A stretch of DNA of 64,000 bases from Trebouxia sp. TZW2008. Its lineage: Eukaryota; Chlorophyta; Trebouxiophyceae; Trebouxiales; Trebouxiaceae. Every line of letters starts with the position of its first letter. Position 1 is the first letter of the stretch. The position numbers and the translations under genes were made by a program. Under the pieces are notes generated by a model that worked only from the letters and a program-made list of their open reading frames with translations, did not search any database and was not told where the DNA came from. Positions 6,801-60,483 of the stretch are shown here, one piece after another. The stretch spans positions 23,662-87,661 of the forward strand of contig BDIU01000116.1 of assembly GCA_002118135.1 (NCBI GenBank). The letters are read 5' to 3'.

Positions 6801-9800
6801 TCAGGAAGAATATTTCCGGAACAGAATGCATGAGTTATGACCTCCAAAACCAAATGAATTTGACAGAGCAACATTAATGTCATGCTGCTGCTTTTTGGGG
6901 CCAACCAAAATGTTCAGGTCCACATCTTCCTCAGGATCTTCCAAATTCAGGTTGGGGTGCAATTTACCTGCAAGACGGCAATGAAAGCTTTACACACACA
7001 TTGCAGCTTCAAGCAATAATTACATGTCCAGACTACATGACATTCTGCACAGAAGAAGGGTCACTTTTATGCATAATGTCTATCTTGTCATCCATTGCTG
7101 AAGCACCAACAAACCCGCTACATCTGGACATGTCACGCATTGGCATACAGCAAGCATGACGGATGAGCCTGACTTGTCTGCATAGCTTGTGTGACAGCGA
7201 CTGCTTCTACAGCACCAGCTGCGCCAAGCATGTCAGGTATCACACTGCTTCCAACACTGAGCAGAGTCATCAAACCTCACTAGCCAGCACGTGAATGATG
7301 ATGATACTGATGTCATGTGGGGCTGACCTGTTTGCATAGCTTGTATGACAGCAACTGCTTCTACAGCACCAGCAGCACCCAGCAGGTGTCCAATCATGCT
7401 CTTGGTGCTGTTGATGCGCACATGGTCTCCAGGCAAAGCATTCCTGATAGCTCTGTACTCTGCCATGTCACCTGCAAGACAAGTGCTTTCTGAAAGAGCT
7501 ACTGAAAGACAAAACTCCTCTGAAAAATGTGAATCAAGCAGGTGTCCAATCATGCTCTTGGTGCTGTTGATGCGCGCAAGCTCTCCAGGCAAGGCATTTC
7601 CGATAGCTCTGTACTCTGCCATGTCACCTGCAAAATGCACGTGTACTGGGAGGACTGATTTTGCGAGTAGAGAATGGTTCCGTGTAGCAGAATGGGCGAA
7701 GGGTGAGAAGCCTAGGACTGCATCTTAGATTGTGCTATTTGGTCATCCTCAGCTTGACAGTGCACATTGTGATGGCGTCGCAGCTTTTTCCTTGTATGGG
7801 AAAAGCAATGGGTGTAGGTGCCTATTTGCAAACAGCATGCATTACATGAGCGCTAGGATGACTCAATACAGACTGAATGACATCAAAGCGGGTCGGCCAG
7901 CAGGTCCATCCACCAAGCAGACGAACAGCTGCCATACTGGAAAACATAGACAGCTGTCCAGATGCTGAAAATGTCAGGAGTTGACAACAGATTTACACAC
8001 AGGCATATGCATTTGCAGCTGTGCATGCAGTCATGCAGTTGCCGTGCCACATTTATACAGCCATGCAGTAGCCATGCAGTGTGTATACAGCCATGCAGTA
8101 GCCATGCCAACACAGGCAGGCAGCACAGCAAGGGGACTGAGTGCATACCAACAGGTGTTGATGTTCCATGAGCATTGACGTAGCTTACATCCTGGGGCTG
8201 TACTCCAGAGTCCGCCAAGCCCCTGCACCACCACACTCTGTCAAATGTTTTGCATGATCGCATATGTATGCGTAACGTTTGTCTGAATGATGGCTGTTTT
8301 CCAAGTCACACCCTGAGATTGCACTGCAGACTCTGCAAAGCCCCTGCACCTCTTCATGACAAACATACAGGGAATCAACGATGAGTCGTACGGGTTTCGA
8401 GATGATAGCGATTGTGCAACAAAATTATCACAGGCACCTCTTTTTGTCATGCCCACTTTGAGGCAGACTTTTAGGGCTGGCAGTTGTCTACATTACCAGG
8501 ACGCAAAGAGAGAGAAACCATCGTGTACTCCTTGATTGTTGTACAATATGTAAAACACGCAGTTTATGCGGCACATATGATCAGCCTTGTCGGCTTGGTC
8601 AAGCACATGAGCTGTTTCTTTCTTTCTTCATCAAGTACCGCAAAATGATGTGATTCTCATTGGATTTTGCATCTCACCATGCTATGCACATGCCAACACC
8701 TCAGCCGTCTGGCAGGGACTCTGTCATGTTGTATGCGCCGCATGCGACTCTGCCTCCCCGGTACTTAAAATCTTTCTGTGACTTGTAAGAACACTCTCCA
8801 AACACAGCACGTCTCTTCTATTTGAAGTTCTGACCTGTCTATACACATGCTGACGCCTTGGCCATCTGGCAGGGGCTCTGTCATGTTGTATACATCACAG
8901 GTAATGCTGCCTCCTAGATACTAACTTCTCTTCATAACTGGAAAGAGTTTGCATCTATGATCTGTTCCTTGCCTTGTCAAGTCTCACCTTTCTATACACA
9001 TGCTGACGCCTCGGCCATCTGGCAGGGGCTCTGTCATGTTGTAAGCGTCGCATGTGAAGCTGCCTCCTAGGTACTCCGCCAGTATGTGGGCACCTCGCGC
9101 CTTTGCATGTTCCAATTCTTCAAGAACAAGAACACCTGCATTGCATGAAAAAGTAAGCATGATGCAGGCATGCCATTGTTGCATTGTTTTTCATTTGTGG
9201 CTAACAGGATACAATCTGCAAGACCTTAAACATCCAGACTGCCTGCACTCCCATCATTGCACGTCTTTGCCATTGTTGATTTATGGTTTGCAAGCTCTCG
9301 CGGAATCAGAATGCCTACAATCATGCAAATCATTTGTAAATTTGCCAGTATGTTAAACCACGACTTTGACACCTGCGCTCTGCTTGCATGCAAGCCCTTC
9401 ATCTCAACATTGCGCGTTTGCATTTGCACCATTGCATGTCTGCAAAGCTCGTCCTGCTCCAGAACAGGCACAGAACAGCTGCAATCAGAAAGGTCATCAA
9501 GAGTTCACCTTCTCCCTCGCCCATGAGAAAGCCATCCCGATTTTTGTCCCAGGGTCCAGAAGCTTTTGTGGGCTCAGCATTGCGGTGAAACAGGACGTGG
9601 CATGCAACCAACAACTGAAGTCAAGGTGCTTTTCTGTTTGACAGCAGCCCAGACCAAAAGGCGTTAGGATTTTGGCTGTCCTTCGCCCTTGACAAAGCCA
9701 TTGCTGCTTGTGTCTCAGGGTCTTGAATCTGTTGTAGGTTCAGCATTGCAGGTAGGCAGGGCTCGGCATGCACAAAAAAACGGAAGTGCGTGTGCTTTTC

Positions 9801-12800
9801 TTTCTGACAGCAGCCGAGACCAAAAGGGATTAGGATTTCACCTGCACCCTCGCCCATGACAAAGCCATCTCGGTTCTTGTCCCAAGGCCGAGAGGCTTTT
9901 GTGGGTTCAGCATTGCGATTAGACAACGCCCTACAAGCAATGAAGCCCCCTACTCCTGAAGGGATGATAGCTGCTTCTGAACCCCCTGCCAGCATCAGGT
10001 CAGCCTCCCCTCTCTGAATGTGCTCTGCCGCACTGCATCACCACCAAATTCCGTGAAACTCATTCATGCCAGATGTTGAGCACAAGCTTGTAAAGTGGCT
10101 CAAGCTTGTTAACTTGAGATTGTTGTTGCCAGTGGCGCAACCGTGTGTTTTGGGCCCATAGAGCATCAACATGAACACCATGAGAATTGTGTTTCACAGG
10201 GAGAAAGGCTTACTTGAGGATGCAGTAATTGCCAGCAGCACAAGCAGTGAAGGTGTGGTAGTTGAGCCCCATGAAACCCGAATCTTGTGAAACCCAAAAT
10301 CTCAGTACTGGGACAACATGTGATTCATCAGGAAGCGCTATATGACAGGGACAAAGGCTTGGGTGTACACAATACAGCAGAAGGCTCACTAGAGGATGCA
10401 GTAGTTGCCAGTAGCACAGGCAGTGGAAACGTTGTAGTTGGGTCCCATGAAGCCAACACAGTTGTTGTACACTGACACTCGTTTTTGCAGACGCAGATGG
10501 TCAAACATGCTTGAGTGAAAGCTTATGAGACAAGTTACAGCAGAACTTGTGTCTACAAAGCCACAACTGGTATGGCTTACTTGAGGATGCAGTAGTTGCC
10601 GGTAGCACAAGCAGTGGAGACATTGTAGTTGGGCCCCATGAATCCTAGGTCCATGGCCAGCAGCGCGCTGCTCATGTTGGTGATGGCAAACGGTATGCAG
10701 AAGGGGTTCATCTTCTTGAAGGACTGCAGTGCGCACAGATTTTCACATTGACCATTGCACTTTCCAATCAAATGAGTGCTAGACAGGCTCAGCAGACCCA
10801 GCTAGGTGTGTACTGGAGCAATCGCATGTCTCCAACCAGTTCGATCCTGTGCTAATTTTAAAACATCTGAGATGAGCATGGCGGCTGAAAGTAAATCCAG
10901 TCAGCTGAATTGGTGCTTGAGTCGCTGTAGTGATGCCACCACAGCACTTCAAGGCTGACTTGACAAGAATGGAAAAGACATTGTCAGGAAACAAACAATG
11001 TCTTACTTGCACCTTGTGTACATCGTCTATTTCACCCTGTGTTTAGCATAGGCAAGAGCATGAATGACGGGATGGCATATGAATAGATATGGACAAATGA
11101 CCTACCTTTAGTGACAAGTCCTCAACAGCTTGTGCAAAGGTTTGCATGCCGCCCATTGCTGTGCCTATCAGAATGCCTGCTCGCATCTTGTCTACATTGT
11201 CTATGTGGTCCTTCTCTATCGCTATGCCAGCCGCTTGCAACGCCTACAGCACACAGCAAGCACGTGATGTAACGATGACAAAGACTTATCACACATGCTA
11301 TGTGATCGTTTTCTATCACTAGGCCAGCAGCTCGTAATGCCTACAGCACATAGCCAGCACATAATGCTATCATGACAATGGTGTTGTGACACATGCTGGC
11401 GCAAGTGCTAGGTGTGTATGACCAATCACAACGCCTGCTCGCATCTTGTCTATATGGTCCTTTGCTATTGCTATGCCAGCAGCCTGTAGCGCCTACAGCA
11501 CACAGCAAACACGTGATGTAATGATGACAAAGACTTATCACACATGCTATGTGATCGTTCTCTATCACTAGGCCAGCAGCTTGAAATGCCTACAGCACAA
11601 GGCCAGCACATAATGTTATTATAACCATGGAGTTGTTCCACATGCTGGCGCAAGTGCTAGGTGTGTATGACCAATCACAACGCCTGCTCACATCTTATCT
11701 ACATTGTCTATATGGTCCTTCTCTATTGCTATGCCAGCAGCCTGTAACGCCTACAGCACACAGCAAACACATGAGGGAACGCATGCACAGCGGCTTGTTT
11801 GCTCTCTGAGCTTTGTGCCGTTTGATGCATGCAGCTTGTAATGCCTGCAGTACTCAGCAAGCATATGTCATGCGTGGTGTTGCACGTGCAACAGCAATTT
11901 CTGCGGTCTCTGAGCATCTTTCCATTTCATGCATGCAGCTTGAACATCTGCAGCACACAGCAAGCACATGGTCTGCGCACACTTGTGGTTGCATCTGCTC
12001 TTTTGCTTTCTCAGCATCTCAACGCGGGATATGGATGCTGAAGCCCATGCAGAGCAGCTTGTCTTAATCTGGCGCTTGTCACCTGCTTGCAACCTGTACC
12101 CTACTGTCGCCTATGCAAAACCTGCCTGTAACCTGCCTGTAACCTGCTTGTAACCTGCCTGTGACCTGCTTCTAACCTGCCTGTAACCTGCTTGTAACCT
12201 GCCATATACATACAATCTGCATGTAACCTATGAAACCAGTTGACCTGTTGCACAGGACAGAGTTTGACTGCCCAATTTAATCCAATTGCCGTGCAGGATG
12301 AGCACTATGCTGACTCTAAGGTATTGCAGACAAATGAAAGCCTGGGTGGCTTATGTGCTGCTATCCAGCATGGAGCCGCATTTGCAATGCAGCAAGGTTT
12401 GGGACTAACACATGCTAAGGAATCAGGGCAGCAGCTAACGACATGCCACAGTGCATCGTCAGCGTCATAAGCAGCGCATGCAGAACACTTTGCTCTCTTG
12501 AGTAAGAAATACAGCAAAGCTTCATTGTCATGCCGTGGTAACTCACAGGTGCTTGGTGTGTGTTGTCCTAACCCTGATTTGCTTTTAAGGGCATAGAATG
12601 CACTGATGCAGATGTGCAGGTACAATCAGACCAGGCTGCACAGTTCAGACTTGTGCAAGCTGAGGCAGAAGTGGCGCCTTCTGGCAGTGTCTTCTGGACA
12701 CCGCTACTTTATCAGCTATGACAATCCTGTAACTTGCAGCCTGGTGCTATTGCATGGCTGCATGGCGAGCTTTAGCAAAGGTGCTATGATTGTGGTCCAG

Positions 12801-14325
12801 GCCCTCTCTCGCTGTCAAGAGCATTAATGATATGTGTGCAGATGCACCATGACAAGGCACATGAGCAGCATAAAAGACAGTGGCTAAAGATGGTGACGAT
12901 GCTCCACCTTTTTGCCTGCGACTATTGTGTACTTGATGACATCGTCAAGCCGTCTCGCCATTTTCTTGTTGATGTACTGGCCAACATCTAGCTCCTTGAT
13001 CTCGCCGGCAAACTGTGTGCTGTAGGTTGATGCATCCCATTTGTCAATTTTGCTGATGCCACTGTTTCCCTGCACAATTGCAGCACAGATCATTTTGTCA
13101 GGTGTCAAACCAAGTGCTGTGGCTTTGTGCATCCCATTTGCCAATTTTGCTGATGCCACTGTCTCCCTGCACAATTACAGCACAGAGTATCTGATCAGGT
13201 GTCAAACTAGGTGCTGTAGCTTGGTGCATCCCACTTGTCAATTTGCTGCTCCCACTGTTTCCCTACGCCTATCATGACATCATGACAGGCTCCTATGGTA
13301 CAGCAAGCCGGCATGTTCAAGTTGAACAGTCAGTTGCCAATGCGTTAGTCAGGGAAGTCTTCTGCACAGCAATACTCTGACGGTCGGTCAAGTATACATG
13401 TCGAAAGCACAGATATGTCTTGAATTATTGCACTCATGTGTATTGCACTAAAGCAATGCAGCAGACATTGGCTTTGTGAGACTGCAACAATCAAAGCATG
13501 CCGGATCATGCACATGCTGCCTTGTACACAATCAGAAATACCAGCACCAAGGATGTGCTGATTTTGCGCTGATAAAAACACAAGACCATTCTTTCACAAA
13601 ACGTTGTCGAGTCTGCACTGATCTGTAACAAATTGTCGTTAAATTCTTTGGGATCCTAGGCTATTCATTACACCCATGCCTGTCACTCAAGCTTTTATGT
13701 GCTGCCATGCAGAACAAGGCCAGTGGACACTGGTGATCTGCATCTCTGCAGTTGTGAGGGCTGACCTGTAACAAGTTGTCATAGAACTCTTTGGGGTCAT
13801 GCCCTAGGCTCGTTACCACACCCATGCCTGTCACCACCACTCGGCGTTTGGGCTTAATGTGAGGGTGGGGCTTTGTATGCTGTGGAGCTTCTCCCGCCAA
13901 CACTTTCAAACGTCTCTGTAATGCCAAACAGGCACTGACAGCAAATGATTGAACAGGCAATGGCCCGTTTTGGTGCAAAATCTAATAGAGCCATTTGTTT
14001 CAAGCAGATATGCCCATTCATGACATGATGAAGAGCCAGCAACGCAAATGCCTTGTCAAGTAGCACACTGGTACCAATGCAACAGATGCCATGTTGACAA
14101 GGCCGTGTTTGCAGTTGGTCTTGACACCCCTGCTCACAATGCCTTGAATCGTTCAGACTAGCTTGTGCCAGAAGGTCGAAGACCTCACCGTTCGTGACGC
14201 TGGCACGCGCTGTGTGTGCCGCTGACAAGGCTGTGATAGCGGTAGGCTACCTGCAACCGACGCACAGCATTTGCAGAGCAGCTTGATGCAGCGCCCATGC
14301 ATAGGGCGCAGTGACTGCAACACAT
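6801..14325 (-). CDS. KAS: 3-oxoacyl-[acyl-carrier-protein] synthase (KAS I/II, FabF type), plastid-targeted
   Basis: This enzyme condenses acyl-ACP with malonyl-ACP in plastid fatty acid elongation. Ten exons read on the minus strand: 14325-14251, 13915-13766, 13069-12908, 11243-11106, 10723-10581, 10032-9842, 9135-8988, 8222-8149, 7471-7328 and 6967-6801. All phases agree, giving 463 residues. Residues about 1-45 are Cys/Ala/Ser/Arg-rich and look like a transit peptide. The thiolase fold starts at [15 protein letters not shown]. The nucleophile is Cys about 214 in STACATGN. The catalytic histidines are about 354 (NAHGTSTP) and 389 ([10 protein letters not shown]), and the conserved Lys is about 384 (INSTKS). 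The C terminus has [10 protein letters not shown]. The start at 14325 is the Met nearest the first donor; the frame stays open upstream to about 14685, so a longer leader is possible. Sequence alone does not separate KAS I from KAS II. Several introns carry decayed exon copies. Confidence 0.95.
7165..7240 (-). repeat. Decayed copy of the 3' part of KAS exon 9
   Basis: Minus-strand sequence reads [19 protein letters not shown], nearly the end of exon 9 (7471-7328). It lies downstream of that exon in the same intron. Confidence 0.75.
7545..7631 (-). repeat. Copy of the 5' part of KAS exon 9
   Basis: The minus strand reads [15 protein letters not shown] and then [12 protein letters not shown], with a CAG acceptor context like that of exon 9. 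It lies upstream of the working exon. The copy stops after HLLDS and lacks the Gly/Ala-rich remainder. It is well preserved and could act as a cryptic acceptor. Confidence 0.8.
8690..8925 (-). repeat. Two decayed copies of the 3' part of KAS exon 7
   Basis: Blocks at about 8690-8770 and 8840-8925 repeat the segment around [13 protein letters not shown] and its donor from exon 7 (9135-8988), with a period near 150 bp. Both lie downstream of the working exon and carry substitutions and frame breaks. Confidence 0.75.
9510..9755 (-). repeat. Two decayed copies of the 3' part of KAS exon 6
   Basis: The minus strand reads [20 protein letters not shown] in the working exon. Copies at about 9665-9755 (with a stop) and 9515-9610 ([20 protein letters not shown]) follow downstream. 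Confidence 0.8.
10202..10470 (-). repeat. Two copies of the active-site segment of KAS exon 5
   Basis: Minus-strand copies at about 10470-10389 ([20 protein letters not shown]) and 10285-10203 ([20 protein letters not shown]) repeat the 3' part of exon 5 (10723-10581), including the nucleophilic Cys motif and the donor region. The period is about 187 bp. Both lie downstream of the working exon. Confidence 0.85.
11250..11960 (-). repeat. Array of decayed copies of the 5' part of KAS exon 4
   Basis: The working exon begins [20 protein letters not shown] at 11243. Upstream on the minus strand, copies begin near 11340, 11492, 11588 and 11750, with weaker ones near 11840 and 11945. They alternate between two types, [15 protein letters not shown] and [15 protein letters not shown], so the array is a higher-order repeat of about 250 bp. 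Confidence 0.8.
12118..12206. repeat. 11-bp tandem repeat
   Basis: AACCTGCCTGT and its variant AACCTGCTTGT are repeated about eight times in head-to-tail order inside the intron between KAS exons 3 and 4. Confidence 0.9.
13128..13265 (-). repeat. Two decayed copies of the 5' part of KAS exon 3
   Basis: Blocks at about 13128-13190 and 13225-13265 repeat the start of exon 3 ([13 protein letters not shown] and its acceptor). They sit upstream of the working exon with a period near 95 bp. Confidence 0.7.
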
Positions 14326-16980: not shown

Positions 16981-18571
16981 GATACTGCATACATCTCAGT
17001 CAGTGATGACATAAGAGCACGGCACTGCATCCATTGTATCATAAAGTGAATTGATCATCATCAATTGCATGCTTACTGATGGGGTTCTGTGAGCCAGCAA
17101 AGTGCACACAGAAGCGATGACCCGCATTTGAACAAATTTCTTTCTGCATGGCATGCTTCAGATCATCCATGGTCTTAGACTACTGGATTGCTGTGTGGCA
17201 ACTGCATTTGCCAGAATGTTTGCCTGAAACATTATGAATTTTGACAATTGTTTAGTCTATGCGCAATGAACATCTACCGGCAGCACTCGTACAGCGACTG
17301 CTGTTGCATCTGCCCATTGCTCAATATCTGATCATATGCTGTGGAATCATGACGCAACAGACATTGTTGCATTGTGCCATTGCTCAAAACTGGTTCAACT
17401 GCAGGCAGTATAGCGCCATCCCAAAGGGTCCAATTTGGTGGACATATCATGCGGCAGGGGCATGCTGTGGCATTGGCATGGGGCTGACACGTGTAGTGTG
17501 GGGCTAGGTGTGCATAGCTGCTAGCAGAGATAGTCCTGCTGCTACAGACATCATATAGTGTTGTCTCCTTTTACACACTGCATTGATAACACAGGAATCT
17601 TTTAGTCAAAGACACCACCTGTCAGAATGCAGTCATTGGTTCCCAGTTGCCTTGTGCTTACATCAAGAATGTCCTTGTCACAAAAAAATTGTACTTGCAG
17701 TTTGGGCTGCGGAGAAAGCCCTGCTACTGACACTTGAATTGGAATCAAGCATGTTGTGTCTGGCGTGCTTAGGGTAATTTGTATTAGCACTCAAAGGACT
17801 CAGGAAAGAGGCTTTCTGTGCCCTGATGTAGCAGTCTGCTGCTGTGCAACAAAGACTGAACAGACTTCTGAGTTCAGCAGCAGTGTCTGCCCCTTTAGAC
17901 AGCTTGGCTTGCGGCATTTGTTGGTGTCAGAGAATGTGAATGTCCTCCACATGTACAGCAAGGGTTTCCAATGATGCCTGCCATGATGCCAATAACTTGT
18001 CTGCCAGATGTGTTACATGCATACTTCTTTCTTAGCGATGCTGCAAGTGTATTGTAGCAGTGGCCTCTCACAGCTTGCAATCATCACATGAATCCTTGCA
18101 ATACTCAGCACATAGTCACATTAGTCAACGTGCACAGCAAATCATGCTCCCATCAGCACAAAGTTGATTGTGAGTCCATGCACCCAGTCTCGACGGCTAG
18201 TTGTGGTTTGCAAGATGGTGTGTGAACAGGTTCCACAATTTCGAAAGGATAGCATTCGTTTCTTAGAATTAGGTCTCCAGTGTCGAAGCTGAAATTACCC
18301 TCGACCTGTCAGCATATGCATATCAAGGTATGCACTGCTACATGCCTGCCAATGCGATAATGTTGGGCCCACAAAGCTCGAAAACACACCTCGATGCTGA
18401 GCAGTCATGAACAGGTACAAACATAGCAAAAGCAGCTTTCACAGCTGGTTTTGCAACTGTCGTGTGCTGTCCAGTACTGTTTCATGCAAAGGCTTTGCTG
18501 CAAACTCAAGGCAGCAGAATCAAAATTGTCACATTGCAGTGAAAGAGTATCAAGTCAATGATGCTGTCAGG
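16981..18571. other. Convergent intergenic stretch with a dispersed-repeat copy
   Basis: No exon with recognisable homology was found. A copy of the dispersed repeat family lies at about 17605-17690. The remainder should include the 3' UTRs of the flanking genes. Confidence 0.5.
17605..17690 (+). mobile_element. Dispersed short repeat, copy 1
   Basis: It contains GTCAGAATGCAG followed by a TTCCCAGTTGCCTTG block and TTACATCAAGAATGTCCTTG. The same ordered blocks occur at 37640-37725 and 38600-38715 on this strand, and at 26060-26175 and 55745-55880 on the other. Confidence 0.65.
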
Positions 18572-41639: not shown

Positions 41640-41819
41640 AGAAACGAAACAGCTTCTGTCAAGCGCGAGCGCCAATTAGAGACGTCTGCTGAAACGTCAA
41701 CAGCGTGGCCTCACAAACATGTGACGGCTTGCAACTGACCACATGTGATTGACTGGTCACATGTGCCTGCAGATCTGTTGCTACAAGACATGGACTGCTT
41801 CTTCCGCAAATTCAACCCT

Positions 41820-42275: not shown

Positions 42276-42782
42276 CTACAGGAGCTGGCTCTTGGTCTGT
42301 TGGCAAGCTAGCCCCACCTGACTTGACATATTCAGCAAAGTGCAAATTGGTCATCTTGTACAAAGGTGTTGACACAATGTGGTCGATTGCAAGCTGTCAC
42401 ATGCAAACAAGGTCACGCTGTCAGCTTTGCAGCTGAGGGCTCTACTTGGCGCTTGCTATGGTCAGAAGTTGTTTGCTTTCTTCAATCACACGAGCAAGAG
42501 CTCGACAGCAGCGCTGCAAGCTGTCACATGTCACACGGTACAGCTCATGTATTCTGCTGCAAGCCGTCACAGTGCATGTGTTCACTACCATATCTTGCTC
42601 AGCACACATGTAGAAGATGCGCACGCTAGCTAGCATGGCGGCACCAACTTGCCATAACAACCGCTGCCAGCTGACAGACTGGCTCTGCCAGCTGGCCATA
42701 TATTCAATCAACTGCAGGACCAAATGCTTGGTCACTATGTCTGAGAAGCCAAAACGCCCTGACCTATGAGAGAGGTGGACAC

Positions 42783-48483: not shown

Positions 48484-48514
<31 letters not shown>

Positions 48515-49996
48515 CCACCACCACCACCATCACCATCACCATGATAGTATCATCACCATCCGTACGATGCAATGTAAAAATGCTGCATCTCCTGACTGTA
48601 CTCATGGATGATTTCTGGTAAAAGTCTATTACCATTGATTTAGAACAAGCTCATTTTCTTCACTGATTTGCATCATTGAAAATTGTGGTCCAGCATTTGC
48701 TGACAAGCTGCGCCTGACGACCATTCCCAGGGATATCTTTCAGTGAACATTGTAGCAAGTCAGTGATCCGCAGTGCCCTTGATGAAGCTGACTATACAGT
48801 CCTTGAATATGTTGACATGCAATACACTGCTGGGCGTTCAGGTTGTGCGTTCCTATTGCTGCAGTTTGTGACAGCCGTGCTGGCAGAGCTGCACAGCTGT
48901 AACAGCACCTTGAGCCATATCATCTTACTATCGTGCATGCTCCTTTCATGACAACATATGGATGTGACTAATCAACATGCTTTGCTGGCCCTCCTTAAAT
49001 GGGCTGACAGTCGGGTTTGAAATGCAGGCTGGTAAAGGAGTTCAGCATGAAGGCATGCAAGGAGTGCCGTTTCAGTCATGGAGGGCAGTACTTTGCAGCG
49101 GCCAATGGCAACACCATCTCAATTTACAACACCTACACTTTTGAGAATGTTGGTAACCTGAGGTACGTGACCACCAAACTTGAGTGATCAGGAGTCTGAT
49201 AGCAGAAATGTAGCTACATGGCCTAGCGCATATCTAGTAATGCCAGCATCTAAACTTGCTGGACACACAAGCGTCGTGCTGCATGTTGGCTCAGCATTGT
49301 CAATTTCGTCTGAAGCATTGGGCACCAACAATGATTTACAGCTTCACAGTTGTTTTGGTGTCATCAGAGCTTAACAGCCATGCTCTTCAAGCAGACTAAA
49401 CAGTCAAGCTGCAACAGCAGCTGGCAAGCTGTGCTCGTGCTATCAATACAGGTGTATATACAGTCGTAGTACGTGGTATGCAGGGGACATAATGGCAAGG
49501 TGAAAAGCCTGGCATGGCTGCCTGACGACACCAAGCTGGTGTCAGCTGGAGTGGATGGAGCTGTGTATGAGTGGAGGCTCAAGGACTTCAAAAGGTCCAA
49601 GGAGAATGTGCTCAAGGTATAGCAGCTGTCCCTGCTGCTGCTGCTACCAGTCCATGCGTTCTGGCATTGCCCTGTGCAACTTTTTGGCAGACCTCACTCT
49701 GCCAGAGCCTTTGTTGGCGTGACAACAGCTGTGATGACGCCCATCAGACCTGATGTTGAGACACTGTGTCCACAAGATGCTGGGTCACTTGCATTGAGCT
49801 GGCAAGGGGCTTATCCAATGACCCAGTGACGCACACCTTGTGGTTGTGCAGGGGTGCTCGTACAGCTGTGTAGTGGCTACACCAGACAGCCGCGTATTGT
49901 ATGTTGTGGGTTGTGACAAGAAGCTGAAGGAGCTGCATGAAATTGTGTGTGACAGGAGAATTGTATGGTTGAAAGTTCACTTGCATGTTGTGATGA

Positions 49997-50031
<35 letters not shown>

Positions 50032-53000
50032 GTGATGCGTGCGCAGGGTTGCTCATACAACTGTGTAGTGGCTACACCAGACAGTCGTGCCCTATATGTG
50101 GTGGGAAGTGACAAGAAGCTGAAGGAGCTGGAGGAGGTTGGGGGCACCGGCACTCAGGTCACCAAAGAGGTGGACACCGCCACCAACGTCAACAGCATTG
50201 CCCTCCCAGCAGGTGAGTTTTGCAGACCCTAGCGCCAGCATTACAGGGTTAACATAAACATGAGCTGTGCTGAGCCACAGCAGCACAACCCTTTGTTCAG
50301 CACATAGGTGAAACCCCGAATGCAGCCTGCGTCTGTGCCGGCAACAGCACGCTGCCTCATGCACATACCAACAAGCTGTCAGCATTCATGATCAGTAGTA
50401 AAGTTGACCATTTATGAACCATGGCAAGCTACAAATGTCGCATGCTGTGAAGCCACAACACAAGTGCTGTCAAAACCGTTGGTGACAGCAAGTCAATGTC
50501 ACAAATACTTCAGAGGCCTCGATGCAGGAGCGGTAGTGGGACGCCGATCATAGATCCTGACAAGTTGTTGGCGTGCGCAGGAGGCAGGCTGTGGTTTGCC
50601 GGCACAGACACAGGCTGCATCAGGGCCTACAGGTACCCGCTAAACGGATAATTCTGCTGCTAGGGCTCAGACTGGTGCTGCTGTCCACGACATGTGGCAG
50701 TTGCCACTTGACACCAACTGACATCAGCTTTCTTGATTCATGTAGGAGGCAGGGTGCTGTTTGCTGGCACAGACACAGGGCTCACAAGTAACCGCTGAAT
50801 GGAGAGTTTTGAGAGTTCCGCTGGTGTGGATCATACTTGTGCTGCTGCTTCACAACAAATGTCTGCTGTTACTCAGTACTGATTGACATTACCATTGTTC
50901 CTTCCTGCAGGAGGCAGGGTTCTGTTTGCTGGCACAGACACAGGCTGCATCAGGGCCTACAAGTACCCGCTGAATGGCGAGTTCCAGGAGTTCCGCTGCT
51001 GTGGATCAGCCATCACACAGCTTATGCTCACCCATGATGACGCTGTGCTGTTTGCCTCTGGGCAAGATGGGTCCTTGTTTGTCTTTGATGTCAAGGACAA
51101 GGACCCTACTAGAGTCATCACCAAGAGGTAAACTCTGGTCCAATTTTGGCTAATTTACTGATATACTCCACAATTGTTATGAGTTTCGAGTCCATTGCTG
51201 CTTCAGGCTGGCATCCCTTCTCTCGGGTTTGTTCTTCATAGTGGGGTGAAGCCACATGAACAGTAAGAGTTGCATGTCTCAAACAAGCAGTTCAAGCAAA
51301 CCATCAAAGTCGTGTTGAATCTTACAGGCTTGCTGCGCTACACTGCTGCAGTACAGGCTTGCGTGATCATCACACTCAGATTTGCGTGTGTCAAGCTTGA
51401 GCTCTAACCCTCTCTGCTGCATGACACTTGACAAAGAGCTTGTGCTGCATTTGCCTGCTTCATGGATGCTCCAGCAAAGCTTTGGGCCCCTTATGCACGC
51501 ATTCCATGTGGCTTGTATATGCATTTGGAGTGATAAGCAACAAAGTGCAAGGCCTGGTGGCTTTGTACAGAGCTTGACTTGAACAGAACTTGTACATGGC
51601 TTGAGGAGCACAGAGCATGTCATGAGAAGTGTCTTGGTAAGCGCACCTTTGACACCCTGAGCATGGTCATGGTGCATTGCGTGAGATCATCGCTTCACCA
51701 GTCAACCTCCAAGGCCTGAGCGTTCACGTGTTATTGAGGCCTCGACAACCAGCATAAAGGCAACCTTAAGGCGTAAGCACTCAGCACAGAGGGAGTTGCA
51801 AGGCGTGAGCATGCAGTGTTGAATCGGCACAGTGGTGAGTTTGCACAACAAGAAGATGACTTTCAAACATGCTGTTTGGTGCAGGGAGCTGGATGGTATG
51901 AGCTATGCAGAGGAGGTGCTGGTGACCAAATCTGAGCTGGAGGAGAAGAAGCAGCGCATGTCTGAGCTGGAAACCCAGGCAAGCCATTACCGCCTTTGTG
52001 TTGTTGTATCTCAACAGATATGCTGCTCAAAACACTTGTGGTAGCCCTGCACTTGTATGAATCAAAATGCAAACTGCAGGTCAGCATCAACGTGTCAAAA
52101 TTTGCATCAGACCCTGGCAGACGGTGCTGGTCATCACAATGTTTTGTTGGTCACTTTGCTGCTTCCTACATTACTACCAGCAGCTGTAATTTGTTTCAGG
52201 GCATGTCACCATTGCGGGGCAAAACTCCAGTGAATAACGCAAAGGTGTGAGCATTGCATTTGGCCTGTCAAGCTGTTTTTGCATTTGCATGCACAGCTGT
52301 GTGAGCAGCAGATCAGGAGCGACCCCGGAACATGAACATCGATTTCATCTGTATGATCATGCACGACAGATCATGAGTGTCATGCATTCCCTGTGCACAT
52401 CAGTGCTAATGCACGTTGAAATTTGTCTGTGCAGGTGAACGAGCTCACTATGCAGCTTGAGTACCAGCTGTGTCTGAAGAATCCGGCAATGAAAGAAAAG
52501 GTCAAAGAGTTGGCCAAAAAGGTCACTGCTGTCTGTCTGTGCAGGTGAACGAGCTGACCATGCAGAATGAGTATCAGCTATGTTTGAAGGATCTGGCAAT
52601 GAACAAAAAGGTCAAAGTGTTGGCCAAAATGTTCACTGCTGTCTGTCTGTGCAGGTGAATGAGCTCACGATGCAGAATGAGTACCAGCTGCGTCTCAAGG
52701 ATCTGGCAATGAATGAAAAGGTCAAGGAGTTGACAGAAAAGTTCACAGCCGAGCTGGATGTAGACAAGACCAAGTTTGACACCCTGTTACAAGAGAAGAA
52801 TGAACAGGAGCTTGACTATGAGGAGAAGATGAAACAGTATGAGGAGAAGCACCAACAGCAGCTGGCTACCCTTGATGGACAGTACCAAGCCAAGATCATG
52901 GCTGAGGTTGAAAGGTACAGCCTTTGTCCAAAGTTTGACTTGTTTTGCATTGGAGTCGTGCAAAATTGAACCCATGACCTGTTGTCAAAATACAGAAACA

Positions 53001-54499: not shown

Positions 54500-54532
<33 letters not shown>

Positions 54533-57500
54533 CACAGCACCACTCATAAGCTCATCAAGAAGGTTGGCTGATTCTGATGGCTGAGTATGCATTGTGACAC
54601 CCTAGGGCTCAAACCCCGCTGCACATTGCAGGTGTGGAAGCAAGCTGAACTTTGAGCAGGAGCAGGGCCTCAGGCTGGAGGGCAAGACTAGCATTGCAAA
54701 GAAGAAGTTTAGCCCTCCTATACGCAACATAGGTTTCAGGGCAAAACCCCTGCTGTACATTGCAGGTATGGGAGCAAGCTGAACGTTGAGAAGGAGCCGG
54801 GTTTGAGGCTAAAGGGCGAGAATGGTGACATCAAGAAAAAGTGTAGCACACCTACACAAAACGTATATTTTAGGGCAAAAACCCTGCTGTGCATTGCAGG
54901 TATGGGAGCAAGCTGAACTTTGAGAAGGAGCTGGGCTTGAGGCTAAAGGGCGAGAATGGCATCATGAAGAAGAAGTTCAGCGCCCTGCAGAAGGACATTG
55001 AGGATCAGAGGGAGGAGATCAGGACTATGTTTGCTCACAAGAAGGAGCTCTACCAGGTGCGCTTGTTTTTCCAAAAGACTAGAGAGAAATTCTATGTGTC
55101 CAATCAAATCCTGTCTAGCTTTAGGCTTTGAACAGGTACCAGAAAATGCATGATCTTGTGCTCCTCACAATGCAAACATTCTGCATATATGTTTGAGTCT
55201 GCTTCAAACAGAGGCAGGAGATCAGGACCATGTTTGCTCACAGGAAGGAGCTGTACCAGGCGCACTCTTCTGCTTCAATCTTCTCTTTGGAAGGCTTGTC
55301 ACTGCACAGACATTGATGTGTTTCTCTCACAAGAAGGAGCTCTGTCAATTTTGCTCTTGCGTTCAGTGATCTTGTTGGGTCTATGATCTTCAGAAGGCTC
55401 AAGGGGTTATTCAATGAGCTGCAATGGTGGTGCATTGTTTACACTTGTTTGCTCACAAAAGGGATCTCTACCAGGTATTTTTGTCCAGGGATTTATTGCG
55501 GTGAATAGACTTTGTAAACACAGACTATCATCAGCATCTTTAAAGTATTTTTGGTCTGCTGTCACAGACTATCAGCAGCCTGGAAAAGGACATTGCTGGG
55601 CTGAAGAAGGAGATTGGGGAGCGCGATGAGACCATAGGGGACAAGGAGAAGCGCATCTATGACCTGAAGAAGAAGAATCAGGTGAGCACAAATACACTCC
55701 AAAACTTGCAGATTGTCCATGCAGCGCTTGGGCCTTACATGTCTAAGTGCTGTTTTTGGGGATACAGTAACTCCTCTCTTCAAGGACACTCAAGTTAAGG
55801 GCACTCTTGATGTAAAGACATTGCAGGTGGGAACACATCACTGCATTCTGACTGCAATGGCACCTCTCAGTAAGGCAATTTGACTGTAAGATCAAGGAGC
55901 TGAATCATCAATCATTTATCACCAACATTGTCACCGTTTGGCAGAGGTTGAAACAAATGTAAATTTGTGCTTGACTATAAGATCAAGGACTCAATAGGCT
56001 ATCATCACATCTACTATTATCATGCAAAAATTGGAAGAGTTCAACTTTGTGCTGGACTACAACATCAAGGAGGTGAAATGTCAACAGTCTATCATCACAA
56101 TCATCATCATTTTGGGTGTTTAAATAAGCCTGCTGTATGACCTACAGGAACAGGGTGAGGCATACCTGTTGCCTGGCTCGCGTCCACGCGAGCACAGGTG
56201 TCAGATCAATCAAATTAATCGATTATCGTGATCATGCAGGAATTGGAGAAGTTCAAGTTTGTGCTGGATTACAAGATCAAGGAGCTGAAGAAGCAGATTG
56301 AGCCCAAGGAGGAGCAGATTGCTGACATGAAGGACCAGGTCAAGGTGCTGCCCTGCCCTGCCTTGTTGTAATGCCCTGCCCTTTTGTCCTGCCGGACCTG
56401 ATCCTGCCCTGTCACTCTGTCGCATATTATCCTACCCTGTCTTGTTCTGCCCTGCCCTGCCCCAATACCACTTGGCACCGTCGCAACAATGTGTGCTATG
56501 CATTGGGTGCCATTGCCCCACGTTCAGAAGACGACGCTGTGCACTGCTGCGTCGAGGTATTGGTACTTGCACAATCCACTGTCTTGGATATGGACATAGC
56601 TGAGCACCCCTGCAACCACTGGAGCTTTGGGTCCAACTCCGCTGTCCTTGTCAGCTGGCACACATGTGTCACACTCTGAAATGCCGCCTCATGATGGTCC
56701 TCACAGGAGATGGACTTTAAGCTGGAGGAGTATCACAAGAGCTGTGCAGCCTTGAATCTGATTATTGGTGAGGGCTGTTTGAAGCAGGCAGGGCTGCACA
56801 AGGAGTCAGCCCATCGGCATTCACGGCCTCTGTCAATGTTGTTCACTTGCGCGCGTATGTTGTGTCAAGTTCTGAAGTGACACTACAGGAGATGGACTCC
56901 GAGCTGGAGAGGTATCACAAGAGCTGCGCAGCCTTGGAATTGAGTGTTGGCGAGGGCCGCTTGAAGCAGGGAGGGCTGCACAAGGAACTGTCGCGCCAGC
57001 GCTCACAGACTCAGGATGCCCAGCAAGCCATCAGGCATGCGCTTTCTTCTAAACTGCACTGATTTTGCCAATTCTGCACAGTAGTTGAGAGGAAATCATC
57101 TTTCCTATGATGCCTCAGCATAGCTGCTCTAGTCTGTCCCAACTTTTGCCTCTGTTCATTAGCTTGCTATGCTTGTTTTGCCTGGTGACAGGAGCTTGTA
57201 CGAAACCAGATCGCAGTTGTGAGTAAGTTCAGCAAGATCTGTACAATGCACGCCAGTTCATTCAGGCACAATGGTTGCAGAAGGAAGCTGTGGAGAAGCT
57301 GTACTGCATGAAGTGTGGCAAAGCGCTGGACACTGTCAGCCAGCTTGCCATTGCCGCTGACTTTGCTATTTTGCACTGACTACAGACGTTTGCAGAGAGA
57401 TCTGCAGAATGCAATTCAGATCATTCAGGCTCCAGGGCCAATGAAGGAAGCTGTCAAGAACCTGTACCGCGCCCACTGCAGCAATGCCCTGAACACTGCC

Positions 57501-60483
57501 AGCGCAGGAATTCATTGCTGCCGAGTTGACCATTGTGCAAATGCTTGCAGGCGGTTTCAGAGGGATCTGCAGAACGCAATACATTGCATTCAGGGTCCAG
57601 GGCCACTGAAGGGAGCTGCAAAGAAGCTGTCCCGCGCCCACTGCGGCAAGGCCCTAGACACTGCCAGCAGAAGTTTTCATTGCTGCTGAGCCTACCATTG
57701 TGCACTTGCTTGCAGGCGGTTCCAGAGGGATCTTCAGAACGCAATCCAGTTCATTCAGGCTCCAGGGCCACTGAAGGAAGCTGTGAAGAAGCTGTACCGT
57801 GCTCACTGCGGCAAGGCCCTAGACACTGCCAGCATTGAGCAGGAAGTGCTGTCAGAGTATGACAGGCAGCGAGAGTTCCTGGAGAAGAGCGTGGACTCTT
57901 TGAAGCACAAGTTGCAGCAGGAGACTAGCCAGCATAAGGCTGAGAACAGCAAGGCCATGCTGGTATGCATATTCTCATAGATGACAATCGTGTTCATGCC
58001 AAGCTAGCAGCAGTCAATGGTCAAAGAAAGCAAGGCAAAACCTGTCTGAAAACTGTCAGTGGGACTCTTCCAAGAATAGAATGCAGCAGGAGACTAGCCA
58101 GCATAAGGTTGAGAACAGCAAGGCCATGCTGGTATGCACACCCTCACAGACCACTCACGATGTATACACAGGATGGCTCAGGCATAAGTGCATGCTGATC
58201 AGTTCCTGAGTGTGATTGCGCATGCTGGCCTGCTGCCATCTTGTAAATTGATAGAGTACAAGCTGCAGCAGGAAACTAGCTAGCGTAAGGTTGAGAATAG
58301 CAAGGCCATGCTGGTACACATATTCTCACAGACAACTGAGGCTCTTCAGCTATGATAACACTTGCTGACTGTAATAAGGTTGGTGATGATGATGATCATG
58401 ATCATCTTGTGGATTCTGGTTTGCTAAGTGCCATTGACATGGCATCAGGCAAATGTGTCTTTGCACTGCAAAATCAATGAGTTGCAGCATGAGATCAAAG
58501 ACTTGAGTCATGCAGCAGCGTCCCCAAAGCCTGGACCATGCGAAAGTGCTATCTAGGCCAGAATCAGATGGTCCATGGCACCTAGCTTGAAAAGAGCATT
58601 CAATGGTTTGCAGGCTAATGTGGCACTGATCAGTGAAGTTAATGAGCTGTGGCGGGAGATCAAGAATTTGAGGCATTCTGCACTGTCCTCAAAGCTGTCC
58701 TCAATGCATTTTCAGACCAGAATCAGATGCTCCATGGCACTCAGCTTGAAATGACTGACCAATGGTTTGCAGGCTAATGTGGCTTTGATCAGCGAAATCA
58801 ATGAGCTGCGGCGGGAGATGAAGAATTTGAGGCATGCTGCAACATCTTCAAAGCCTGGGGCTGGCATTGGGGCAAGTTGGGGTGAGGGCAAGGGTCACAG
58901 ACGGGTCTCAAAGGAAGCCAAAGAGCCTCTCCCACCCCCTCCTGGGTATGTTGGTGATATTGATTGTAGTTCTATCATTCTTGTTAAGATTGTTCTTGAT
59001 GTTAGTTACATTAGCATTTTGATCGTGACTCATGGTACTAATGATGCACAGGCACATGGAAAGTTAGCTCGTCACGGTAAGTTGCATATTGCCAGTCTTG
59101 TACACGCATGGGCATAAGACGACACTTGTGATGGCATGTGATTGGACCAGGATGCAGATGAGTCACTGGCCACTGCCCAGCCAACCTTGCATCTGCCTTG
59201 CTGGCCCGTTGTATTTTGTCTTTGACGGTAATGTCCTGGCTTCGCTGACCAGCTCAAAGGTCTTCACTAGGCACATTTCTGACGTGTTGCCTTTGCACAG
59301 CGCGCAAATCAGTGGCAGCATGTTACACGCAGATTATGGCACCTCACATGGCCTTTGATGTTCCTGATCTTGTTGATGTCCAATGGATTTGTGGGTGCAA
59401 TGCAGGGCTCAAGGGCTTGGTGACAGCAGTGACGAGCTGCGTTCAGAGATTGACTCCTTGCGAGCAGATGTTGCACTTCTGCAGAGCGAGCTGGCGCTCA
59501 GGTATTCTGTTGTGCCTTCCCTTGCTGTTGTCTTTTATGCATGTGTTCTCATGCACCGCCACATTGGCTTCTGCAGACCGCCTTAGCGCTCAAGTGTTCT
59601 GCTGTGCCTTCCTTTGCTGTTGTCATTGATGCACCAATGTGTCTTCATGCACAGTCACATCGCCTCTGCTCTACACCAATTTAAAGCAGAAGAGCCAAGT
59701 GCGGAGTCTAGAGCACTGGGTCTGAGGTCATGTTCAAGACTCAAAGATCACTGGGTAATGAGCATCACAACTCACAGCTCCGATTCAAGACTCAAAGATC
59801 ACTGGCGCATGAGCATCACAACTCACAGCTCCGATGAATATGCTACTTGATTTTGTGCACAATACATAGTTATTGCAGTCGCTGCTGTTAGCGTTGCTGC
59901 ATTTCTGCTGGCCAAAGATGTGATCCCATGTCTGCAAAATGCATGTGCACTGTTGCTAGATTGACATGAGGCAATCAGGTGCCGGGCTCACCACCAACAA
60001 GCTGTCACTGCCTCTAATTCATGGACTTTGTGGCCTTGCTTGCATGCAAACATGACCCTCTACTGTGTGGTGCATACGCTCTGCAAGTTGTTTGCGTATT
60101 GCAAAGCAAGGTCTAGCCTTGCTGCAGTGCTTTATGCTGATGTGATACGTTGCGCAAAAGCATGTTCTGATATAAGCAAGTTTCACCTAGGCAAGCTGTG
60201 CAAGCGCTATGCTTCCATCCATTGGCTTCTCGCTGCATGCGTCTTGAGGGGGCTTGACGCATGTATATGTCAGAAGCAACTTGATGATGCATATGCCTTG
60301 GCTTGTGACTTGAAACAGTGCTGATTCTGGTGCTGTTTGTGCCGCAGGAATTCACGCATTGCAGAGATGGAAGGCCAAATTGCTCCTAGGCCCATGTCAA
60401 GGGAAAGATTGCCAGCCATGGAGGGGTTCAAAGAAGTGTTGTTGCCAGAGTCAAGCGCACAGTCAGAAGTTTTGTCTATGTAA
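43911..60483 (+). CDS. CFAP57: Cilia- and flagella-associated protein 57 (WDR65 family)
   Basis: This is an axonemal WD40/coiled-coil protein linked to inner-arm dynein assembly in motile cilia. There are 23 exons: 43911-43936, 44056-44344, 44983-45135, 46068-46364, 46998-47216, 47789-47928, 48257-48385, 49028-49162, 49484-49616, 50047-50212, 50911-51127, 51885-51978, 52655-52914, 53346-53481, 53887-53999, 54900-55056, 55568-55681, 56240-56338, 56889-57034, 57716-57962, 58773-58945, 59406-59501 and 60348-60483. All phases agree, giving 1224 residues, close to the animal protein. WD40 blades span residues about 10-640 ([73 protein letters not shown]). The coiled coil spans about 650-1170 ([73 protein letters not shown]). 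Introns after exons 12 and 19 appear to be GC-AG. Exon 1 is tentative. Many introns hold exon copies. Confidence 0.97.
44848..44960 (+). repeat. Decayed copy of the 5' part of CFAP57 exon 3
   Basis: A block with AGCATGGCGTTTAGCC and CTGGCTGCTGTCAGC resembles the start of exon 3 ([13 protein letters not shown]) and lies upstream of it. A matching fragment of that exon's 3' end occurs downstream near 45318-45345. Confidence 0.5.
45700..46040 (+). repeat. Array of decayed copies of the start of CFAP57 exon 4
   Basis: The acceptor and start of exon 4 (TGCCTGTTCAACCCTGGAGC at 46068) recur near 45707, 45799, 45882, 45951 and 46020 with spacing of 50-90 bp. All are upstream of the working exon. Confidence 0.75.
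46421..46710 (+). repeat. Two decayed copies of the 3' part of CFAP57 exon 4
   Basis: Copies at about 46421-46516 ([20 protein letters not shown]) and 46555-46700 (with a CTCTAG stop in place of CTCCAG) follow exon 4 and retain donor-like ends (AAAGTAAGC, CAGGGTGAGC). Confidence 0.9.
48487..48545 (+). repeat. CAC/CAT microsatellite in a CFAP57 intron
   Basis: About 16 CAC or CAT triplets in a row. It is in the intron after exon 7, so the apparent polyhistidine frame is not coding. Confidence 0.95.
49852..49962 (+). repeat. Intact-looking extra copy of the start of CFAP57 exon 10
   Basis: It follows a CAG acceptor and reads [20 protein letters not shown] and then [12 protein letters not shown], with no stop. 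A GTATGG donor lies after 111 bases, keeping phase 0 at both ends. It could be a cassette exon inserting or replacing part of a WD blade. The working exon at 50047 reads [20 protein letters not shown]. Confidence 0.75.
49997..50033 (+). repeat. CTG/ATG triplet microsatellite
   Basis: A run of GATGATG, CTGCTGCTG and GATGATGGTG triplets immediately before the exon 10 acceptor region. Confidence 0.85.
50579..50820 (+). repeat. Two decayed copies of the 5' part of CFAP57 exon 11
   Basis: Copies begin near 50579 ([20 protein letters not shown]) and 50744 ([12 protein letters not shown], then broken). Both are upstream of the working exon at 50911. Confidence 0.9.
52435..52654 (+). repeat. Two 110-bp tandem copies of the start of CFAP57 exon 13
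   Basis: Acceptor-plus-exon units start at 52435 and 52545, and the working exon starts at 52655, so the period is exactly 110 bp. Each copy ends in CTGTCTGTCTGTGCAG. Because 110 is not a multiple of three, reading through a copy would shift the frame, so the last acceptor has to be used. Confidence 0.95.
54501..54532 (+). repeat. CAG microsatellite
   Basis: About ten AGC/CAG triplets inside a CFAP57 intron. Confidence 0.9.
54633..54855 (+). repeat. Two copies of the 5' part of CFAP57 exon 16
   Basis: Units begin at 54633 and 54766 and the working exon at 54900, periods of 133 and 134 bp. Copies read [18 protein letters not shown] and [18 protein letters not shown]. Confidence 0.92.
55210..55480 (+). 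repeat. Three decayed copies of the 3' end of CFAP57 exon 16
   Basis: The stretch coding [14 protein letters not shown] plus donor recurs near 55213-55260, 55318-55345 and 55440-55475, all downstream of the working exon. Confidence 0.8.
55745..55880 (-). mobile_element. Dispersed short repeat, copy 5 (most complete end)
   Basis: Read on the plus strand it begins TACAGTAACTCCTCTCTTC, then AAGGACACTCAAGTTAAGG, GATGTAAAGACATTGC and TGCATTCTGACTGCAATGGC. The TACAGTA start and the AAGGACA block resemble ends of Tc1/mariner-pogo-type transposons; that link is inference. Confidence 0.65.
55885..56075 (+). repeat. Decayed copies of the 5' part of CFAP57 exon 18
   Basis: A copy near 56027-56075 reads [16 protein letters not shown], and traces of DYKIKE lie near 55890 and 55972. 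All are upstream of the exon at 56240. Confidence 0.75.
56345..56465 (+). repeat. CCCTG-rich low-complexity stretch
   Basis: Irregular runs of CTGCC/CCCTG follow the exon 18 donor of CFAP57. I see no coding sense. Confidence 0.8.
56707..56835 (+). repeat. Decayed copy of CFAP57 exon 19, 5' part
   Basis: It reads [20 protein letters not shown], then [12 protein letters not shown], after a CAG acceptor, upstream of the working exon at 56889. Confidence 0.9.
57220..57715 (+). repeat. Three copies of the 5' part of CFAP57 exon 20
   Basis: Copies begin near 57224, 57387 and 57552, with the working exon at 57716; the spacing is about 164 bp. The last two keep RDLQNAIQ and [24 protein letters not shown] sequence and a CAG acceptor. 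Confidence 0.92.
58080..58320 (+). repeat. Two copies of the 3' end of CFAP57 exon 20
   Basis: The stretch [17 protein letters not shown] plus GTATGC donor recurs at about 58083-58136 and 58262-58318, the latter with a stop. Both are downstream of the working exon. Confidence 0.9.
58449..58700 (+). repeat. Two copies of the 5' part of CFAP57 exon 21
   Basis: Copies begin near 58450 and 58613, with the working exon at 58773; the period is about 162 bp. They read [20 protein letters not shown] and a more diverged version, each after a CAG acceptor. Confidence 0.92.

What the first reader, a model, noticed from the sequence alone, without database searches (positions are those of the whole stretch)
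6801..60483. Boundary-polarised exon echoes: a rule that holds in every long gene
In KAS, the GH47 mannosidase, TAD3, the epoxide hydrolase, CFAP57 and the first gene I find about 30 exons with decayed tandem copies in neighbouring introns. Copies of an exon's 5' part, with acceptor, always lie upstream; copies of the 3' part, with donor, always lie downstream. Exons with both kinds show both sides (CFAP57 exons 4, 16 and 20; KAS exon 9; mannosidase exon 10; TAD3 exon 5). I found no exception. The simplest explanation is that tandem duplication of a segment spanning one splice boundary is neutral at birth, because the outermost boundary still gives the normal exon and the extra copy becomes intron. 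Repeated events would lengthen introns and leave a fossil record. I know of no named system for this.
Basis: partly seen in the sequence, partly recalled or inferred. Interest (0 to 1): 0.88.

Follow-up and report, generated by a model that had tools for sequence, protein, structure and literature searches.

The report
Boundary-polarised partial exon copies in introns
In this green alga, introns hold many decayed copies of the edges of neighbouring exons, in all clear cases on the outer side of the exon they match; they were likely left by repeated small duplications across splice boundaries, which would lengthen introns without changing the protein.

Summary
In the window plus 20 stretches of the same 68.5-Mb Trebouxia-like genome, 54 exon families hold 86 one-edge copies (after dropping two families where a copy was taken for the exon): 54 of 54 copies of a 5' edge lie upstream, 32 of 32 of a 3' edge downstream. 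For 48 of the 86 the forbidden mirror position would also be intronic. Exon-edge pairs are 2.6 times commoner than random placement gives.

The copies decay about neutrally (stops at the expected rate) and lack a second splice site, so they are not spare exons.

A plain tandem duplication copies the intron flank too. Flanks of this age should be detected in at least 92% of pairs, but only 11 of 61 two-copy arrays show one. The founding event seems to leave exon edge, unrelated spacer, exon edge, about 160 bp apart; later exchanges copy edge plus spacer together.

Boundary-crossing tandem duplication is known from single cases. The scale and the unrelated spacer are the new parts. No RNA data were available.

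The parts
7328..7471 (-). KAS exon with copies on both sides
   Evidence: gene model (boundary); Trebouxia C0005 protein match; copies
7537..7633 (-). copy of its 5' edge with acceptor, upstream, 94% identical; flank beyond about 6 nt not detectably related
7169..7233 (-). copy of its 3' edge with donor, downstream, 88%
8672..8922 (-). two 3'-edge copies (about 8835-8922 and 8672-8765) of KAS exon 8988-9135
9501..9749 (-). two 3'-edge copies of KAS exon 9842-10032
10207..10454 (-). two 3'-edge copies (10383-10454 and 10207-10278) of KAS exon 10581-10723
11298..11781 (-). four 5'-edge copies of KAS exon 11106-11243
13106..13264 (-). two 5'-edge copies of KAS exon 12933-13069
13618..13686 (-). 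3'-edge copy of KAS exon 13766-13915
19381..19440 (-). 3'-edge copy (downstream) of GH47 exon 19565-19714, which also has a 5'-edge copy upstream at 19828-19890
21030..21296 (-). two copies upstream of GH47 exon 20736-20965: a 5'-edge copy (92%) and one that begins at exon base 9 (86%)
21847..22379 (-). four 5'-edge copies of GH47 exon 21542-21690
22563..22652 (-). 3'-edge copy of GH47 exon 22736-22949
23833..23901 (-). 5'-edge copy of GH47 exon 23598-23745
37815..37949 (+). 5'-edge copy of the epoxide hydrolase exon that resumes at 37997 (88%)
   Evidence: not in the polarity count
46422..46706 (+). two 3'-edge copies of CFAP57 exon 46068-46364
49845..49935 (+). 5'-edge copy of CFAP57 exon 50047-50212
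50577..50833 (+). two 5'-edge copies of CFAP57 exon 50911-51127; edge-spacer-edge-spacer-edge array
52424..52639 (+). two 5'-edge copies, 110-bp period, of CFAP57 exon 52655-52914
54603..54842 (+). two 5'-edge copies of CFAP57 exon 54900-55056; its 3'-edge copy is at 55209-55266
56019..56077 (+). 5'-edge copy of CFAP57 exon 56240-56338
57236..57669 (+). three copies (about 163-bp steps) upstream of CFAP57 exon 57716-57962; the outermost begins at exon base 14
58062..58332 (+). two 3'-edge copies of CFAP57 exon 57716-57962
58446..58695 (+). two 5'-edge copies of CFAP57 exon 58773-59062

Best explanation
The introns of this Trebouxia-like alga carry decayed same-strand copies of the edges of neighbouring exons, each likely left by a tandem-type duplication across one splice boundary after which only the copy joined to the rest of the exon would be spliced. 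The founding event leaves the order outer intron, abandoned exon edge, spacer, intact exon (or its mirror image at a donor). Shown: order, side, nearly neutral decay, no enrichment of a second splice site. Inferred: that the abandoned edge is the one still joined to the old intron end, that the spacer was added at the junction rather than copied with the edge, and that splicing ignores the abandoned site. Afterwards the two like edges likely recombine unequally and copy edge plus spacer together, giving arrays with a half-integer copy number and introns that grow in steps of about 160 bp. The polarity rule would be survivorship: only duplications that keep one intact exon and put the other copy in an intron remain.
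For: Polarity 86 of 86 one-edge copies in 54 families, 48 with an open forbidden side (these are alignments, and of all 96 copies 90 remain when overlapping ones are merged). Exon-edge pairs 61 of 101, random placement 23.8 +/- 4.3. Nearly neutral copies: in window families with two or more copies, copy-specific changes are 148 nonsynonymous to 87 synonymous (neutral 168 to 67) with 11 stops against 8.6 expected, while exon-specific changes are 13 to 30. Copied acceptors keep AG in 42 of 52 and donors GT in 24 of 33; by my arithmetic decay alone would keep about 80%. Interior ends show no significant donor excess (54 copies, p 0.06) or acceptor excess (34 copies, p 0.53). Outer flanks of 45 of the 52 5'-edge copies (those not inside another copy) look like true acceptors: T fraction 0.378 against 0.390 in their exons and 0.268 at internal GCAG, AG-free stretch median 25, 25.5 and 8; in 21 copies this holds beyond the aligned part. 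The same residues of the Trebouxia C0005 CFAP57 and KAS proteins align to exon and to copies. Secondary arrays: inner spacers homologous in 16 of 17, outermost flanks in 2 of 17. Offsets of 61 gapped pairs 162 +/- 29, with my cut at 230.
Against: No RNA evidence that the copies are skipped. The spacer step is unexplained: three spacers searched are unique in the genome, so no donor of filler is known. Nearest copies are not clearly the youngest (most similar in 15 and least similar in 10 of 28 multi-copy sides). Copy-specific changes show a synonymous excess (chi-square about 8.6 by my arithmetic). Third-position mismatch is 0.23-0.25 whatever the divergence at positions 1 and 2; a model with divergence already present at birth fits better by 2.7 log units (about p 0.02), and by 26.5 if the third-position rate is fixed at 1.7. 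So copies that arise between diverged alleles are not excluded. Among the 101 pairs with 40 or more aligned bases none is above about 95% identity, so births are not seen going on now; two shorter pairs reach 97%. If the true age were 0.20 per lineage with many indels, flank detection would fall to 22 of 60. The 17 arrays of the inner-spacer test were chosen because they align. The gene finder was my own, and exons outside the window were not checked by homology.
Confidence: 0.62

Rival explanations
1. Plain tandem duplication of one segment spanning the boundary (intron end plus exon edge), followed by neutral decay.
For: Polarity; 11 of 40 contiguous pairs have aligned length between 0.89 and 1.12 of their offset, such as L016 8440-8764 (0.99) and window 32044-32307 (1.03); some flanks are detectably related, such as the nearest copies of GH47 exons 21542-21690 and 20736-20965 (p below 0.001 and 0.016).
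Against: Flank homology in 11 of 61 gapped pairs where simulation at the copies' mean age predicts 55 to 60 of 60 for indel rates up to 0.05 per site.
Confidence: 0.2
2. Old tandem duplications whose exon part was kept similar by gene conversion from the constrained exon while the intron part drifted beyond recognition.
For: Explains why alignment often ends near the splice consensus (21 of 52 overhangs are 10 nt or less) and why exon-edge pairs are over-represented.
Against: Mismatches are spread evenly along the copies (edge 0.168, middle 0.177; mild clustering, combined p 0.005); edge-edge and spacer-spacer divergence differ little in 18 arrays (84-85% against 77% identity); no very young, freshly converted copies among 101 pairs.
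Confidence: 0.13
3. Free local re-insertion of exon pieces into nearby introns (templated insertion).
For: Gives edge-spacer-edge with an unrelated outer flank.
Against: Predicts both sides equally; 48 of 48 with an open forbidden side use the same side. Predicts mostly intron-only pairs; 33 of 101 pairs lack an exon, 52.8 expected, and several of the 33 are copy-copy pairs of exon families. Outer flanks are acceptor-like.
Confidence: 0.05

Closest known systems
Boundary-crossing tandem duplication in the potato RdRp gene (PMC4974935, passages read)
   Same: The duplicated piece holds the 3' end of an intron and the 5' part of the next exon.
   Different: There a new intron is made with a cryptic donor inside the duplicated exon piece; here the abandoned copy is predicted to stay in the existing intron. 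One gene there, dozens of exons here.
[quoted passage not shown] Hellsten 2011; Gao and Lynch 2009, only as cited in PMC4974935; Drosophila cases in PMC2891723, passages read)
   Same: A duplicated exon piece ends up in non-coding sequence and the peptide is unchanged.
   Different: That model duplicates an exon-internal AGGT and makes a new intron; here existing introns get longer and the copies carry an existing boundary.
Tandem exon duplication with mutually exclusive exons (PMC9013439, listing with start of abstract only)
   Same: Copies of exons lie next to the original.
   Different: Here mostly one edge of the exon is copied and the inner end has no enriched splice site.
Introners (PMC9860276, listing with start of abstract only)
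   Same: Large-scale change of intron content; nucleosome-scale insertion pattern is recalled, not read.
   Different: Introners are dispersed repeats; the three spacers tested are single-copy.

Membership tests
Simple tandem duplication across a splice boundary | same orientation, copy outward of the intact exon | tested here: met
   86 of 86 one-edge copies after dropping two misread families; 1 minus-strand match in the 39-exon scan
Simple tandem duplication across a splice boundary | outer intron flank homologous to the spacer | tested here: not met
   11 of 61 against 55 to 60 of 60 expected at the copies' mean age
Rogers-type intron gain by tandem duplication | new intron bounded by two duplicated AGGT sites inside an exon | tested here: not met
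   one-edge copies carry an existing acceptor or donor and lie outside the exon in existing introns
Tandem (mutually exclusive) exon duplication | copies are complete exons with both splice sites | tested here: not met
   no significant donor or acceptor excess at interior ends; both edges in 2 of 96 copies, both outside the window
Introners | many similar copies across the genome | tested here: not met
   three spacers and two exons match only their own locus; three spacers are a small sample
Neutral intronic relic | no coding constraint | tested here: inconclusive
   stops 11 against 8.6 expected, but a synonymous excess remains
Neutral intronic relic | not joined into mature mRNA | not testable with these tools
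   no RNA data; proteins of a relative show the residues once

The most novel reading that the evidence does not exclude
Exon edges in this genome are a hot spot for a duplication process of its own: it re-makes a splice boundary one nucleosome step (about 160 bp) inward behind a newly added, unrelated spacer and abandons the old boundary as a decoy. Repeated in step, this is a dedicated route of intron growth that leaves every protein unchanged and keeps a datable stack of earlier splice sites.
Probability: 0.22. Interest if true: 0.78.

Novelty: new variant of a known kind. Interest (0 to 1): 0.52.

Why it matters
How introns grow is usually told through transposons and random insertions. 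Here part of the sequence near exons in several genes can be traced to the exons themselves, with a strict side rule that may tell which boundary was abandoned. If confirmed genome-wide with RNA and strain comparison, Trebouxia would let one date, boundary by boundary, how splice sites are replaced without loss of the protein, and would ask why exon edges are copied more often than introns. Gene finders are also misled: mine called many copies as exons.

Tried and rejected
Codon-position test: the third-position excess first suggested that copies arise between diverged alleles or keep coding function. Polarised changes, CpG third positions and a fit with a narrow age and no starting divergence, worse by 2.7 log units, make that less needed, but it is not excluded; with the third-position rate fixed at 1.7 the no-divergence fit is worse by 26.5. 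Complete spare exons: not supported. Frame preservation: offsets modulo 3 are 29, 30, 37. Copy length and spacer length correlate at -0.52, but my cut at 230 bp and alignment-end error contribute, so I do not rest on it. Accretion order (nearest is most similar): 15 of 28, least similar 10 of 28, not convincing. One of the 61 gapped pairs (L005 1790) has a further copy inside its spacer and is really an array. Recursive AG|GT sites called by an early version of the gene finder: the pattern TTGCAGGTRAGT with one mismatch is not enriched (3 against 1.5 expected). Rfam: no match. Pfam on three raw frames of 51-61 kb: none; Pfam on a joined TAD3 fragment: none, though the PDB search finds tRNA-specific adenosine deaminase-like protein 3 and TAD3. 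First two gene-finder versions merged or shredded genes and were replaced.

Full report
What the window is. The window is positions 23662-87661 of contig C112 of a 68.5-Mb, 527-contig genome. The best relatives of two of its proteins are from Trebouxia sp. C0005: KAS 86% and CFAP57 88% identical, so it is likely a Trebouxia or a close relative. I wrote a small gene finder and trained it on the window and on 20 other stretches of up to 10 kb (L002-L021); two early versions failed and were replaced. Its genes were checked against solved structures: CFAP57 (8glv, 1315 bits), KAS (1j3n, 380 bits), GH47 (1fo2, 442 bits), epoxide hydrolase (5f4z, 99 bits) and TAD3 (7nz7, E 1e-7). GH47 and the epoxide hydrolase N-terminus are also found by Pfam; the TAD3 fragment is not. 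The C0005 proteins support the exon set of KAS and CFAP57, and the same residues align to exon and copies, so the copies are extra.

The repeats. Self-comparison gives 103 direct but 5 inverted pairs closer than 1 kb in the window. The first 2.7 kb hold a coding repeat and a palindrome; everything before 6.5 kb was left out of later counts. Other stretches have 0 to 17 pairs per 10 kb, the window 16, so the window is rich but not alone. Over all DNA there are 101 non-redundant near pairs (offset up to 230, 40 or more aligned bases): 61 with a gap between the copies and 40 contiguous.

The side rule. A scan of 39 curated window exons found copies at 25 of them: 29 of 29 for the 5' edge upstream, 18 of 18 for the 3' edge downstream, 5 internal pieces and 1 minus-strand match. 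A second run took 21 of these exons, chosen because they had copies, plus predicted exons of at least 90 nt in the other stretches, which were not checked by homology. It gave 56 families with 101 copies: 54 copies of a 5' edge upstream and 1 downstream, 34 of a 3' edge downstream and 1 upstream, 9 internal and 2 with both edges. The two exceptions come from L007 1027-1116 and L021 1259-1368. In L007 the supposed exon is the copy of the longer exon 717-959; in L021 copies lie on both sides and the exon cannot be told. I dropped both families. The remaining 54 families have 54 of 54 and 32 of 32 one-edge copies on the stated side, with 8 internal and 2 both-edge copies. These are alignments; 90 of the 96 remain when overlapping ones are merged. 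For 48 of the 86 the mirror-image position would have lain wholly in the next intron, so a mechanism that inserts freely would have used it. The rule thus points to events that keep each copy joined to its own outer neighbour, which is what a tandem-type duplication does. In that sense it is geometry plus survival, not a new force.

More than random placement. Moving the 101 pairs at random gives 23.8 +/- 4.3 exon-edge pairs; 61 are seen. Random placement gives 24.4 pairs inside exons, where 7 are seen, as selection would have it. It also gives 52.8 pairs without an exon, where 33 are seen, several of them between two copies of an exon family. So exon edges are over-represented even after disruption is allowed for.

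The copies decay about neutrally. In window families with two or more copies, changes private to a copy are 148 nonsynonymous and 87 synonymous, against 168 and 67 for neutral change with the same base spectrum, and include 11 stops against 8.6 expected. Changes private to the exon are 13 and 30. The synonymous excess may reflect changes of the exon between successive duplications; it could also be weak constraint. Copied acceptors keep AG in 42 of 52 and copied donors GT in 24 of 33; at about 0.106 changes per site decay alone would keep about 80%. Interior ends show no significant excess of donors (p 0.06) or acceptors (p 0.53), so the copies do not look like whole exons.

Where the simple model fails. 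If intron end and exon edge were doubled together, the outer flank of the copy should match the spacer. Among 61 gapped pairs 11 show this at p<0.01 on either side, 5 of them among the 32 pairs of at least 85% identity. A simulation with the copies' mean age and indel rates up to 0.05 per site predicts 55 to 60 of 60; at 0.15 per lineage 48 to 59; at 0.20 and the highest indel rate 22. In arrays of three edges the two spacers match each other in 16 of 17, but the outermost flank matches in 2 of 17; these arrays were chosen because they align. In 18 such arrays spacers are 77% identical and edges 84-85%, so both tell a similar time. I conclude that the founding event leaves edge-spacer-edge and that later unequal exchange doubles edge plus spacer; both steps are inferred. 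The outer flanks of 5'-edge copies are rich in T and free of AG like true acceptors, which fits an abandoned original boundary and speaks against insertion at a random place. Part of that likeness may come from a short copied piece of intron, since overhangs range from 0 to 60 nt, the largest that could be seen.

What the spacer is. Three spacers (65, 126, 113 bases) occur once in the genome, and two exons match only themselves and their own copies. So in these samples no transposon, no second gene copy and no second haplotype was seen. The start-to-start distance of gapped pairs is 162 +/- 29, near a nucleosome repeat; that link is inference only.

Age. Third-position mismatch is 0.23 to 0.25 in every class of first- and second-position mismatch. 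A model with one narrow age and more mutable third positions is 2.7 log units worse than one with divergence at birth (about p 0.02), and 26.5 worse if the third-position rate is held at 1.7. CpG third positions differ in 63 of 109 cases, which speaks for high mutability, but birth between diverged alleles stays open. Among the 101 pairs none is above about 95% identical; two shorter pairs reach 97%. Either the process has slowed or very young repeats are missing from the assembly.

Prior work. Duplication of a piece with an intron end and the next exon's start is described in potato, where it made a new intron (PMC4974935, passages read). Duplication of coding pieces with a proto-splice site is proposed for a few Drosophila introns (PMC2891723, passages read). 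The Trebouxia A48 genome paper (69.1 Mb, GC 49.68%, haploid by its authors' preliminary evidence; PMC12712428, passages read) has 'intron' once, in its reference list; the comparison of Trebouxia genomes (PMC11523091) has none of the six words searched. In the titles listed by searches (up to 20 of as many as 67 papers each) I saw no report of a side rule for intronic exon pieces; most subscription papers are not in that library.

Verdict. I rate it a new variant of a known kind.

Noticed in passing
window 17621-17678, 26058-26166, 37631-37718, 38605-38719, 55783-55890: A dispersed repeat of about 60-100 bp in both orientations, MITE-like in size.
   Followed up: no
window 459-606: An imperfect palindrome, 149 columns at 86% identity with its own reverse complement, plus related short arms at 206-257 and 329-381.
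   Followed up: no
window 1451-2687: Long predicted exon made largely of 69-bp (23-residue) coding repeats.
   Followed up: no
window 41603-42518: A 71-bp minisatellite of about 7 copies (41812-42294) lies between inverted arms 41603-41744 and 42377-42518.
   Followed up: no
window 27890-28646: A 147-bp repeat of about 5 copies next to the GH47 model; a predicted exon runs open through about two and a half units, so it may be coding.
   Followed up: no
window 50270-50393 with 50546-50670; 50320-50363 with 50906-50950: An inverted copy of the 5' edge of CFAP57 exon 50911-51127, the only minus-strand match in the 39-exon scan.
   Followed up: partly
L021 3654-3806 and 2507-2610: Further, more decayed edge copies visible by eye just outside listed pairs; at least one was picked up later (80% copy of L021 2197-2331), so counts at fixed thresholds are lower bounds.
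   Followed up: partly
third codon positions of exon-copy pairs: CpG third positions differ in 63 of 109 cases against 469 of 2140 elsewhere, which suggests a CpG mutation hot spot in this genome.
   Followed up: no
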